Source: Planctomycetaceae bacterium | Lineage (GTDB): Bacteria > Planctomycetota > Planctomycetia > Pirellulales > UBA7805 | Length of the DNA: 64,000 bases | NCBI GenBank assembly: GCA_902630355.1 | Contig: CACOUL010000007.1 | Coordinates: 48,265-112,264 of the forward strand | Direction: 5' to 3' | In this document: in pieces, positions 36,614 to 58,834 of the stretch | Layout: each line of letters opens with the position of its first letter | How positions within the stretch are numbered: position 1 is the stretch's first letter | Program-made: the position numbers and the translations under genes | Notes under the pieces: generated by a model | The model's input: the letters and a program-made list of their open reading frames with translations, nothing else | The model's database searches: none | Told to the model about the DNA's origin: nothing

Positions 36614-37207
36614 TCAGTTATCGCTCGGTTTTGCCTCCGAAAACTTTGATAAATCGTTGCGGATCATCGCCGCGTGATCCTCGGTCTTTAGTTCTTTGGC
36701 AACAATTTTTCCCGCGAGCGAGATCGCAAGATCGGCGCTACGGTCGGAAATTTCGCGCAGTGCCGACTGCTTTGCCTGCTCCACTTCGCGGAGCAGCCGC
36801 TGGCTCTCTTCGGCCGCCTTCGCCTGCGCTTTTTCCACGATTTGCTGCCCAGTATGCTCCGCATCACGTCGGGCTTCATCAAGGATCGCCCGAACTTCAT
36901 CGGCGGCACCTGCCAACTTCTCTTCGTAGTGAGCCGTCAACTTGCGGGCTTCCTCGGCCGCGTTTTCCGCCGTCGCGATATTGTCGGCAATTGACTGTTC
37001 TCGCTTTTCAAGTCCGGCAGAGATCGGCCCCCAAGCGAATTTGCGCAAAATGAGCAGCGTCAGAAGGAAGACAATCGCAGTGCAGATCGCCAAATCCACA
37101 TCGAATAAGAGGGGATCCGGACCGGCTCCACCAGCGGCGATTGCTGCCGACGGAAGGCCCAGGCAGAGCCCTGCGAGAACGCATCGGTATGCGCAGTGAA
37201 TCATCAC
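36614..37207 (-). CDS. atpF: ATP synthase F0 b subunit
   Basis: TM segment followed by a long charged helix (KFAWGPISAGLEKREQSIADNIATAENAAEEARK); operon context. Confidence 0.9.
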   Translation of the reverse strand: MMIHCAYRCVLAGLCLGLPSAAIAAGGAGPDPLLFDVDLAICTAIVFLLTLLILRKFAWGPISAGLEKREQSIADNIATAENAAEEARKLTAHYEEKLAGAADEVRAILDEARRDAEHTGQQIVEKAQAKAAEESQRLLREVEQAKQSALREISDRSADLAISLAGKIVAKELKTEDHAAMIRNDLSKFSEAKPSDN

Positions 37208-37288
37208 TCACACGTCCTTTCCTTCAAGCCTTACAGTCCTCCGCGAATCGGATACCCCACTCGCATCGGGCGCATCGGGCCACTACGA

Positions 37289-37606
<318 letters not shown>

Positions 37607-37665
37607 CTATCAAAATTTTTAGGGAATCTTGAATCCTCTGCGGCAGATGCCGCCCGGTTGTATCG

Positions 37666-38571
37666 TTAGTGGGGATGAATGGCAGTGCCAATAAACAGAG
37701 CACTTAGGAAGGTGAAAATATAGGCCTGGAGGAAGGCCACAAGCAACTCAAGCAAGGTAAGGGCACTCGCGCCCGCAACCGCAGCGGGCGCTACCCCGAG
37801 AAATGCAATATGATGAGAACTCGCCAGAATGAACGCCAGCAGCACCGCGAGGACGAGATGCCCTGCCACCATGTTGGCCAGCAGACGAACGGCCAGCACC
37901 ACATGCTTGATCAGCAGGCCGGCCACCTCGATGAGGAAGATCATCGGGAGCAAAAAGATGGCGAGTACGAAAGGTAAATCCATATGGGGCACCAGCGATT
38001 TCCAGAAACCGATCAGCCCCATCTTGCGCATACCAGCCGTCAGCACCACACCGAAGGTCATCATCGCCAGGGTGAATGTAGTACCCAGCGCACCGGTTGC
38101 CGAACCAGCCCAGGGAACTAAGCCGATCAAGTTGCATATCAGGACAAAAAAGAACATCGTCCAGAGAAACGGCAGAAAGCGATCGGCATCTTCTCGTCCG
38201 ATGGCCGGTCGCGCCACCTCGTCCCGGATGAACACGAGCATCGATTCGAGCATGTTTGCCAATTTTCCGCGCGCCGGTGTGCCGTCCGATATCTTTCGTG
38301 CAAGCCCGATAAAGAAAAAGATCAAAACAATTGCCGCTACAACCTCGAGGACCATGAACTTGGAGACCCGCAGATCAAAGGGGGCCAAGTGATAATCGGG
38401 GTCGGCTTGCAGGAGTACCTCGTCGACAAACGGTTCAAAAGGCTGCCAGATATGCAGTTTTCCCTCGTTTGCAACCGCGTGAGGCAGTTCAAAGTGATGC
38501 GCATCCTGCACGTGACCGAACAGGTGTTCGGGGTGGAGCGGATCGTCGTGATGGCCTGTTTCCGAAGACAT
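37666..38571 (-). CDS. atpB: ATP synthase F0 a subunit
   Basis: NLIGLVPWAGSATGALGTT, RLLANMVAGHLVLAV, LLELLVAFLQAYIFTFLSALFIG. Confidence 0.95.
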   Translation of the reverse strand: MSSETGHHDDPLHPEHLFGHVQDAHHFELPHAVANEGKLHIWQPFEPFVDEVLLQADPDYHLAPFDLRVSKFMVLEVVAAIVLIFFFIGLARKISDGTPARGKLANMLESMLVFIRDEVARPAIGREDADRFLPFLWTMFFFVLICNLIGLVPWAGSATGALGTTFTLAMMTFGVVLTAGMRKMGLIGFWKSLVPHMDLPFVLAIFLLPMIFLIEVAGLLIKHVVLAVRLLANMVAGHLVLAVLLAFILASSHHIAFLGVAPAAVAGASALTLLELLVAFLQAYIFTFLSALFIGTAIHPH

Positions 38572-39836: not shown

Positions 39837-40937
39837 ATGAGGGAGATTCGGATGACTGCTGCGTCCCTGCGAGCACTCACGTGTAAAGATCTGGCTCAAT
39901 TGGCTAAAAAAGATGGGGTTTCCGGGTGGCATGCCATGCGGAAGGAGGAGCTTGTACGTGCGCTTCTTCTGGCGGCCCGTCGCAAATCGCGGCGGAAGAC
40001 CGCCTCGGATGGCTCGCGAGCGACGAGTGTGAAAAAGGCGCGTGGCGAAGCGGAGGCGGGTGAATTTCAATCCGCGCAGCGGCTGGTCGATGCCATAAAA
40101 CAGGGGCAGTCCCACCGTCCGGTCCGGAGCAAATCGGACACGATCGTCTTGCTCGTCCGCGATCCTTACTGGCTGCAAGCCTCCTGGGACCTTAAGCGGG
40201 AGAGCATCGAGCGTGCGGCAGCGGCCCTCGATCGCGATTGGCATCGCGCTCAGCCGACACTGAGGCTTGTGGAAGCGGGTCAAACCGCCTCGGCCAAAGT
40301 GAGCGAACGCGTGATTCGTGATATTCCGATCCACGGGAAGGTGAACAACTGGTATATCGATGTTGCCGATCCACCCGCTTCCTTCCGCGTCAAAATCGGC
40401 TTTCTAGCCGGGGAGCGTTTTCACGGTCTTGCGACGAGCAATACCGTGACCACGCGGCCGCGCGAGGACAGCGCCGTTTTAGATGAAAACTGGCAGGACG
40501 TGGCGCATCAGTGCGACAAAATTTACGCCATGAGTGGCGGACTGGAAGACGGGGGAGATGCGGACTACCTTCGCGATCTGTTCGAAGAGAGGTTGCGTCG
40601 CCCGATGGGTTCACCGTTGGTGACGCGCTACGGCATTGGAGCCGATGCCATCGCAGCGAAGAAGCAAGATTTCCCTTTTCAAGTCGACTCCGAATTGATC
40701 ATCTATGGACAGACGACCCCCGGCTCGCACGTTGTGTTTCGCGGCGAACCGCTTGAGTTGCGGGAAGATGGTAGTTTTACCGTGCGCGTGCGACTCGAAG
40801 ATGGAAGAAAAGTGATTCCGATGTCTTCAACGCGGGCGGACGGACTTGAGCAAAAAACGGTCGTTGTGGCACTCGAGCGAAATACAAAGTTTCTCGAACC
40901 GGTGGTTCGGGAGATCGAGGACGTGATCAATAGTTAA
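39837..40937 (+). CDS. DUF4912 domain protein with Rho-N/SAP-like N-terminus
   Basis: N-terminal LRALTCKDLAQLAKKDGVSGWHAMRKEELVRALL (Rho_N-like) followed by DTIVLLVRDPYWLQASWDLKRESIERA (DUF4912-like). Confidence 0.75.
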   Translation: MREIRMTAASLRALTCKDLAQLAKKDGVSGWHAMRKEELVRALLLAARRKSRRKTASDGSRATSVKKARGEAEAGEFQSAQRLVDAIKQGQSHRPVRSKSDTIVLLVRDPYWLQASWDLKRESIERAAAALDRDWHRAQPTLRLVEAGQTASAKVSERVIRDIPIHGKVNNWYIDVADPPASFRVKIGFLAGERFHGLATSNTVTTRPREDSAVLDENWQDVAHQCDKIYAMSGGLEDGGDADYLRDLFEERLRRPMGSPLVTRYGIGADAIAAKKQDFPFQVDSELIIYGQTTPGSHVVFRGEPLELREDGSFTVRVRLEDGRKVIPMSSTRADGLEQKTVVVALERNTKFLEPVVREIEDVINS

Positions 40938-41119
40938 CCGCCGCGGCAATCGTCTTTAAGTGTCCGTCACTCTTTGCGGTTGCGTTACGAAGCCTTTATG
41001 CTACGAAGAAGTGCAATCGCCTCACACGCTCGCTGGCCCCATTTTTCCGTGACGCATTTCAGGTTCCGAGTGGCACCGGAATTGCTCTGGTTTTTTGTTT
41101 GACATTTTGCGCCATTTGC

Positions 41120-41148
41120 TTGTTGTTTATTCTGGGCCGTGCTAGAGT
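41120..41148 (+). promoter_or_regulatory. Candidate promoter TTGTTG-N17-TAGAGT for the structured RNA upstream of larE
   Basis: -35 41120-41125, -10 41143-41148; predicted start a few nt before the terminal stem; a TTGACA also sits at 41099-41104. Confidence 0.4.
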
Positions 41149-41161
41149 ACCGCTGAGACGA

Positions 41162-41375
41162 GACTGCCATCGATCGTGTGCTGCGGCGCTTAATGAGGTA
41201 AGCCGCTAAATCAGCTCGTTGGGAGCCTTAGCAAAGGGACTTGGGGCCGTATAGCCAGCGTCCGGTGCGCAAAACTCCGGAGCAAACGTTTGGATCACGA
41301 AACCAGGACTCAAGGCACCCCCTTGAAGACAAACGAGCTTGCCCACGGCCCCGCAGCACACGATCGACAGCAGTC
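41162..41375 (+). ncRNA. Candidate structured RNA (~214 nt, rod-like; 6S-like architecture possible but not shown)
   Basis: Terminal stem GACTGC-CA-TCGATCGTGTGCTGCGG (41162-41186) / CCGCAGCACACGATCGA-CA-GCAGTC (41351-41375); nested 8-bp stem AGCTCGTT/AACGAGCT (41213-41220/41332-41339); internal hairpins gctta/taagc, tccgg/ccgga, tcaagg/ccttga. Confidence 0.7.
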
Positions 41376-41498
41376 CTCTTGTCCCTGCAGTTTCATCGCT
41401 CTACGCTTAAGGGACGGCGCCGATATGAAGCGCTCGATGGCGAGCTTCTTGAGACGATCGGTTCTCATGTCCCGTCTTTTTCAACGTGCCGATGTTGC

Positions 41499-42332
41499 AT
41501 GACGATGCTGCAGATTGAAGAAACCGTCGATCGGATCCTCTCCCTGCTCAAGGGGTTCGATGGTTGTGCCGTCGCTTTCAGCGGTGGAGTCGATAGTGCG
41601 GTTGTGGCGAAGGCAGCACAGCTTGCGCTGAAGGATCGCGCGGTGGCGGTCACGGCGGTGAGCCCAAGTCTCGCGGCGGAAGAGTTATCCACATCCCGTC
41701 AGGTTGCAAAAATCATTGGCATTCGCCATGAAATTCTGCAGACCCGCGAGCTTGAGAATCCGGAGTACAGTGCCAATTCGCCCCGCCGATGCTACCACTG
41801 TAAAAATGAGCTTTATGCCGAGATTCACAAGAATATGGGTCGTTGGCATACGGACGTGATGCTCAACGGGGCAAATCTTGATGACTGTGAAGACTATCGT
41901 CCGGGCCTGGAAGCGGCCGCCGATTGGAACGTGCGTAGTCCGTTGGCCGAGTGTGGGCTGCACAAAGCGGACGTGCGCCGCTTGGCAAAATATTGGGAAT
42001 TGCCGGTGTGGAATAAACCGGCAACTCCCTGTCTCTCAAGCCGCATTGCTTACGGGGAAGAGGTCAATGAAGATCGGCTTGCGATGATTGATCGAGCCGA
42101 GCAATATCTACGGAAGGCGGGTTACGGTACGGTGCGGGTTCGCTATCACAAGGGTGACCTGGCGCGGGTCGAGGTTCCCGGCGATCGAGTGGGGGAGTTG
42201 GGGGATCCGGAAACTCGCGAGCGGCTCATCGCGGAATTTCACAAAATTGGATTTCGCTACGTCTGTCTCGACCTGGAAGGGTTTCGCTCGGGAAGTCAGA
42301 ATCTGGTGTTGCCTCTACCGCCGAAACGCTGA
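41499..42332 (+). CDS. larE: ATP-dependent sacrificial sulfur transferase LarE-like
   Basis: AFSGGVDSAVVAKAA (PP-loop), NSPRRCYHCKNELY, NKPATPCLSSRIAYGE; start MTMLQIEE at 41499. Confidence 0.88.
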   Translation: MTMLQIEETVDRILSLLKGFDGCAVAFSGGVDSAVVAKAAQLALKDRAVAVTAVSPSLAAEELSTSRQVAKIIGIRHEILQTRELENPEYSANSPRRCYHCKNELYAEIHKNMGRWHTDVMLNGANLDDCEDYRPGLEAAADWNVRSPLAECGLHKADVRRLAKYWELPVWNKPATPCLSSRIAYGEEVNEDRLAMIDRAEQYLRKAGYGTVRVRYHKGDLARVEVPGDRVGELGDPETRERLIAEFHKIGFRYVCLDLEGFRSGSQNLVLPLPPKR

Positions 42333-58763: not shown

Positions 58764-58834
58764 CTGGGGAACTAGGATTTGAACCTAGACTAAGTGATTC
58801 AGAGTCACTCGTGCTACCGTTACACTATTCCCCA
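58764..58834 (-). tRNA. tRNA-Gln (anticodon CUG)
   Basis: Minus strand TGGGGAATAGTGTAACGGTAGCACGAGTGACTCTGAATCACTTAGTCTAGGTTCAAATCCTAGTTCCCCA+G; 7-bp acceptor stem, anticodon loop CTCTGAA, T loop TTCAAAT; CCA not encoded. Confidence 0.93.

What the first reader, a model, noticed from the sequence alone, without database searches (positions are those of the whole stretch)
41099..41400. Candidate undescribed structured RNA upstream of larE
The region directly before larE shows no coding signal but can fold into a long rod. GACTGC-CA-TCGATCGTGTGCTGCGG (41162-41186) is complementary to CCGCAGCACACGATCGA-CA-GCAGTC (41351-41375), giving 17+6 bp around a 2x2 CA/CA internal loop. Nested inside are AGCTCGTT/AACGAGCT (41213-41220/41332-41339) and hairpins at 41188-41203, 41261-41281 and 41310-41326. 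A plausible promoter (TTGTTG-N17-TAGAGT) ends just before the stem. Length and rod-with-internal-loops shape recall 6S RNA. I could not match it to RNase P RNA, tmRNA, SRP RNA or the cobalamin riboswitch by motif. It could be a stand-alone sRNA or a larE leader.
Basis: partly seen in the sequence, partly recalled or inferred. Interest (0 to 1): 0.8.

Follow-up and report, generated by a model that had tools for sequence, protein, structure and literature searches.

The report
Divergent 6S RNA upstream of larE
The rod-shaped RNA before larE is a 6S RNA, the well-known decoy that mimics an open promoter and holds bacterial RNA polymerase, in a planctomycete version so divergent that the standard Rfam model misses it and 6S had been reported missing from close relatives.

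Summary
The rod is real. The 17-bp arm pair at 41170-41186/41351-41367 is the only exact inverted repeat of 14 bp or more within 300 bp in the 64-kb window, and the RNA folds far better than shuffles (z about -5). It is not a new class: it is a divergent 6S (SsrS) RNA. Rfam's 6S model misses it directly. A covariance model built only from planctomycete sequences above Rfam's 6S cutoff, none from this family, finds both E. coli ssrS at its annotated ends (25.8 bits) and the window RNA (41.9 bits, E about 1e-10). A second model from same-order 6S genes gives 78 bits. There is one copy per genome: 157 of 397 genomes of the order match, and wherever Rfam detects 6S in the class genomes tested, it is at the same place. 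In 36 sequences, 35 of 57 pairs show compensatory changes; wobble pairs fix the + strand. The order DUF4912 gene, 6S, larE is conserved, but the RNA also occurs without larE, so it is a stand-alone RNA, not a larE leader. Novelty is modest: a missed member of a known class. One paper reports 6S as absent in Pirellula, Rhodopirellula and Thermogutta.

The parts
41155..41385 (+). 6S RNA (SsrS) gene, about 230 nt; ends inferred from promoter spacing and the end of the closing stem. Model matches cover 41165-41373 (R3) and 41170-41367 (R1, R2).
   Evidence: R1 78.4 bits E=1.6e-15; R3 41.9 bits E=9.8e-11; R2 134 bits, by construction; conserved in the family
41120..41148 (+). Promoter: TTGTTG (41120-41125), 17-nt spacer, extended -10 TGC-TAGAGT (41143-41148)
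   Evidence: TTG-N20-TANNNT upstream of 20 of 34 homologues against 0.22 expected in shuffles; aligned in the family
41157..41186 (+). 5' arm of the closing stem
   Evidence: fold; the only exact inverted repeat of 14 bp or more within 300 bp in the window; covariation of closing-stem helices 1-3
41351..41383 (+). 3' arm of the closing stem
   Evidence: as above
41187..41212 (+). 5' strand of the central bubble; holds GUAAGCCGCUAA, the conserved counterpart of E. coli CUGAGCCGAUAU
   Evidence: AGCCGCUA invariant in all 8 family members; AGCCGNUA-type motif found in all 36 sequences of A4 with a loose pattern
41207..41207 (+). Predicted start of pRNA synthesis (U equivalent to E. coli U44); predicted pRNA 5'-AGCGGCUUACCUCAUUAAGCG
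   Evidence: alignment to E. coli ssrS; initiation itself is inferred
41213..41220 (+). 5' arm of the apical stem next to the bubble (AGCUCGUU)
   Evidence: helix 6 of the consensus, 96.4% of cells paired, U-A to C-G covariation
41332..41339 (+). 3' arm of the apical stem (AACGAGCU)
   Evidence: as above
41261..41281 (+). Apical hairpin TCCGG...CCGGA, variable in length among relatives
   Evidence: alignments
41282..41302 (+). Conserved strand with GGAUCACGAAA, pairing back to GGCCGUAUAGCC
   Evidence: GGAUCAC invariant in 15 of 15; helices 9 and 10 paired in 100% and 90% of cells
41340..41350 (+). 3' strand of the central bubble
   Evidence: fold and model alignment
41499..42332 (+). larE, conserved downstream neighbour; not part of the RNA
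   Evidence: TIGR00268 304.8 bits; same strand downstream in 7 of 7 family loci and 23 of 30 order loci
39837..40937 (+). DUF4912 protein gene, conserved upstream neighbour
   Evidence: PF16258 89 bits; conserved

Best explanation
The element is the single 6S RNA (ssrS) gene of this Pirellulales bacterium. It is transcribed from its own sigma-70-type promoter into an RNA of about 230 nt. A long closing stem, a central bubble and an interrupted apical stem-loop imitate an open promoter. Shown here: homology to 6S, single copy, covarying structure, strand, conserved promoter, and conservation of the pRNA template motif. Inferred from 6S biology: it binds RNA polymerase with the primary sigma factor when nutrients run short, blocks ordinary promoters, and is released on regrowth when the polymerase copies a short pRNA starting opposite U41207 (5'-AGCGGCUUACC...). 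Being next to larE is conserved synteny, much as E. coli ssrS sits before fau/ygfA, not a riboswitch.
For: Independent bridge: R3, built from 17 planctomycete sequences all above Rfam's 6S cutoff and none from this family, finds E. coli ssrS at 284-467 (annotated 284-466; 25.8 bits, E=3e-8) and the window RNA (41.9 bits, E=9.8e-11). R1, from same-order RF00013 hits, gives the window 78.4 bits, full length, E=1.6e-15. One match per genome in 64/118 relatives, 157/397 of the order and, with R2, 128/199 of the class. All 26 RF00013 hits among 39 tested genomes lie at the R2 hit. Covariation: 35/57 pairs, score 0.360 against 0.180 shuffled and at most 0.082 slid. Strand: 215 G-U against 29 A-C cells. 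Promoter 20/34 against 0.22 expected; T5 run downstream 19/34 against 3.0 expected. pRNA-template motif shared with E. coli.
Against: RF00013 does not match the window directly, even at permissive thresholds; the best family member reaches only 21.4 bits against a cutoff of 46.4, so membership is transitive. At about 230 nt with a near-perfect closing stem it is longer than E. coli 6S (183 nt). The window copy lacks an obvious T-run and a consensus-strength promoter. No transcript or polymerase-binding data were available. A4 was fitted to the model, which favours its structure; the unfitted MAFFT alignment still shows changes on both sides at 13 of 33 pairs.
Confidence: 0.95

Rival explanations
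1. A cis-acting leader or riboswitch of larE that controls larE expression.
For: Directly upstream of larE on the same strand in 7/7 family loci and 23/30 order loci.
Against: The RNA persists without larE downstream (L052, L056, L058, L062 keep only the DUF4912 neighbour, L047 and L054 have neither; L062 has a comEC-like reading frame downstream, identified by eye). T-run soon after the closing stem in most relatives. Homology to 6S explains the structure.
Confidence: 0.02
2. An Ms1-like RNA: related to 6S by descent or shape but binding core RNA polymerase without sigma.
For: Ms1 is an RNA structurally related to 6S that binds core polymerase in actinobacteria (abstracts of PMC4191392 and PMC9130861); sequence alone cannot tell which polymerase form is bound.
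Against: The pRNA-template motif and model bridge point to genuine 6S; no other Rfam family matches.
Confidence: 0.06
3. A new, unrelated structured RNA class.
For: No Rfam hit at the window.
Against: Matches by 6S-derived models; coincidence with RF00013 hits across the class.
Confidence: 0.01
4. A mobile palindrome (MITE-like) or chance inverted repeat.
For: Long inverted arms around about 160 nt.
Against: Single copy in the genome; conserved at one syntenic position; compensatory changes.
Confidence: 0.005

Closest known systems
6S RNA / SsrS (Rfam RF00013; E. coli ssrS)
   Same: Closing stem, central bubble and interrupted apical stem in the same order; GAGCCGAUA-type pRNA template on the 5' bubble strand; one copy per genome; own promoter; RF00013 hits fall on the same loci in other planctomycetes; one model finds both E. 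coli ssrS and the window.
   Different: Too divergent for RF00013 in this family; about 230 nt against 183; template GCCGCUAA instead of GCCGAUAU; neighbours DUF4912 gene and larE instead of zapA and fau.
Ms1 RNA of actinobacteria
   Same: 6S-like RNA that binds RNA polymerase (abstracts of PMC4191392, PMC9130861).
   Different: No sequence match found here; Ms1 binds core polymerase; not tested for this RNA.

Membership tests
6S RNA (SsrS) | Homology to accepted 6S RNAs | tested here: met
   R3 from sequences above the RF00013 cutoff finds E. coli ssrS and the window; R1 gives 78.4 bits
6S RNA (SsrS) | Direct RF00013 match above the gathering score (Rfam's operational criterion, not a property of the molecule) | tested here: not met
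   no hit in the window; best family member 21.4 bits against 46.4; neighbouring families do pass
6S RNA (SsrS) | Long closing stem, central bubble and apical stem-loop, supported by compensatory changes | tested here: met
   35 of 57 pairs with changes on both sides; fold
6S RNA (SsrS) | Conserved pRNA template on the 5' bubble strand | tested here: met
   motif around the equivalent of E. coli U44 present in all 36 sequences with a loose pattern; sequence level only
6S RNA (SsrS) | Separate gene with its own promoter, single copy | tested here: met
6S RNA (SsrS) | Binds primary-sigma RNA polymerase holoenzyme in the active site | not testable with these tools
   needs co-purification or gel shift
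6S RNA (SsrS) | Serves as template for pRNA and is released by it | not testable with these tools
   needs in vitro transcription or small-RNA sequencing
larE leader / riboswitch | Always linked to the regulated gene | tested here: not met
   RNA present without larE within 1.5 kb downstream in L047, L052, L054, L056, L058, L062

The most novel reading that the evidence does not exclude
The Pirellulales 6S RNA, with its longer, near-perfect closing stem and changed template, may have a changed mode of action (for example binding core polymerase like Ms1, or a different release by pRNA), and some sister families may have replaced or lost it.
Probability: 0.08. Interest if true: 0.6.

Novelty: new member of a known kind. 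Interest (0 to 1): 0.38.

Why it matters
One paper (PMC5673643, citing Wehner et al. 2014) reports 6S RNA as absent from Pirellula staleyi and Rhodopirellula baltica and found none in Thermogutta terrifontis. Here 6S genes are found in 157 of 397 genomes of the same order, many of them beyond the reach of the Rfam model. This corrects a gap in the known distribution of a global transcription regulator, yields models that extend RF00013, and gives a testable pRNA in a phylum where growth-phase control of transcription is little studied. It also sharpens which families of the order really seem to lack 6S.

Tried and rejected
Rfam search of the region at permissive E-values gave only a spurious fragment. 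Own-genome search for repeat copies: single copy, so not a mobile element. Same-order RF00013 hits first looked unrelated by exact motif search, but reading them showed shared blocks, which led to the models. The LarE-based genome scan gave only four loci and was replaced by whole-genome searches. Synteny search upstream of larE in genomes without a strong model hit recovered only three weak or partial copies (G019, G008, G050), and whole-genome search with R2 found nothing in most of them, so absence there is either real or beyond this model. Single-sequence folding to choose the strand was rejected because the minus strand folds better. The Wehner 2014 paper itself was not held.

Full report
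OBSERVATION. The arms, nested helix and promoter-like boxes are at the stated coordinates. The 17-bp arm pair 41170-41186/41351-41367 is the only exact inverted repeat of 14 bp or more within 300 bp in the 64-kb window. The predicted transcript 41155-41385 folds at -100 kcal/mol, z = -4.97 against dinucleotide shuffles. The minus strand alone folds even better, so energy does not decide the strand.

FIRST COMPARISON. Rfam gives no credible match at the window, at gathering score or at E up to 5. A DNA search finds the element once in its own genome and in seven relatives of the same family, down to about 75% identity. One of them is a contig titled Pirellulales bacterium, which places the window in that order. 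Their alignment shows invariant blocks AGCCGCUA, GGGAGCCU, GCCGUA.AGCC and GGAUCACGAAA.

THE LEAD TO 6S. In the same order RF00013 (6S) matches seven genomes, one above the cutoff. Reading these loci and aligning them with the window family showed the same blocks in the same order: GGUGAGCCGAUA, GUAUAGCCG, CGGAUCACACAA. A model built from those seven order-level sequences, none from the window's family (R1), finds the window at 41170-41367 with 78.4 bits, E = 1.6e-15, and every family locus. It finds exactly one copy per matching genome in 64 of 118 relatives and in 157 of 397 genomes of the order. RF00013 itself sees 16 of 20 high-scoring order loci at E below 0.1, three of them above the cutoff.

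CLOSING THE CIRCLE. A model from a wider set (R2) matches one place in 128 of 199 class genomes. RF00013 run on 39 genomes matches in 26, all at the same place and strand as R2 (compared by reading the coordinates). A third model, R3, was then built only from 17 sequences above the RF00013 cutoff, none from the window's family. R3 finds E. coli ssrS, fetched as control, at positions 284-467 against the annotated 284-466 (25.8 bits, E = 3e-8), and it finds the window RNA with 41.9 bits, E = 9.8e-11, and all seven relatives. One model built from accepted 6S sequences thus reaches both.

STRUCTURE AND STRAND. On 36 sequences 94.7% of cells pair, 35 of 57 pairs have compensatory changes, and the covariation score is 0.360 against 0.180 in shuffles and at most 0.082 when partners are slid. 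This alignment was fitted to the model; the unfitted MAFFT alignment of 15 sequences still gives 13 of 33 pairs with changes on both sides. G-U cells outnumber A-C cells 215 to 29, which puts the RNA on the + strand. The consensus is a closing stem, an asymmetric bubble and an interrupted apical stem, the 6S plan.

PROMOTER, END, TEMPLATE. TTG-N20-TANNNT lies upstream of 20 of 34 homologues (0.22 expected) and a run of five T within 25 nt downstream of 19 of 34 (3.0 expected). The window copy has the promoter (TTGTTG-N17-TAGAGT) but no clear T-run. The 5' bubble strand carries the counterpart of the E. coli pRNA template: E. coli GAGCCGAU(44)A, window AAGCCGCU(41207)A. From 6S biology (own knowledge) the polymerase would begin a pRNA opposite U41207; this is inferred.

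NEIGHBOURHOOD. The order DUF4912 gene, RNA, larE is kept in all seven family loci; larE follows on the same strand in 23 of 30 order loci (LarE by TIGR00268; DUF4912 by Pfam). Several loci have the RNA without larE. So synteny is conserved but the RNA does not depend on larE. The one family genome without a match has larE at the very start of a contig, so the RNA would lie off the assembly.

DISTRIBUTION AND LITERATURE. [quoted passage not shown] Many families of the order have the gene, but sampled genomes of families f6, f8, f18, f20 and many genera of f15 give no match even with R2.

VERDICT. A divergent member of a known class, missed by the standard model. Homology 0.95; the polymerase-decoy mechanism is inferred from homology, about 0.85.

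Noticed in passing
same-order genomes G014, G023, G031, G081, G089, G105 and others (families f6, f15): High-completeness genomes with no match to the 6S models or RF00013, although other genera of f15 have it: candidate real losses or extreme divergence of 6S RNA.
   Followed up: partly
window 41241-42332: The longest LarE reading frame starts at a TTG inside the 6S gene; an automatic gene caller could overlap the RNA. The likely start is the ATG at 41499 (or 41505).
   Followed up: yes
window 39837-40937: DUF4912 protein with a weak N-terminal Rho_N-like match, conserved next to 6S RNA across the order.
   Followed up: partly
window 36614-38571: Reading frames that look by eye like F-type ATP synthase subunits b, c and a lie on the minus strand upstream of this locus.
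   Followed up: no
window 58764-58834: tRNA gene on the minus strand, the only Rfam match above cutoff in the window.
   Followed up: no
phylum-level genomes G663, G677, G705 (f93), G558, G586 (f39), G661, G690 (f67): Single R2 matches of 46-66 bits outside the class, probably further 6S RNAs.
   Followed up: no
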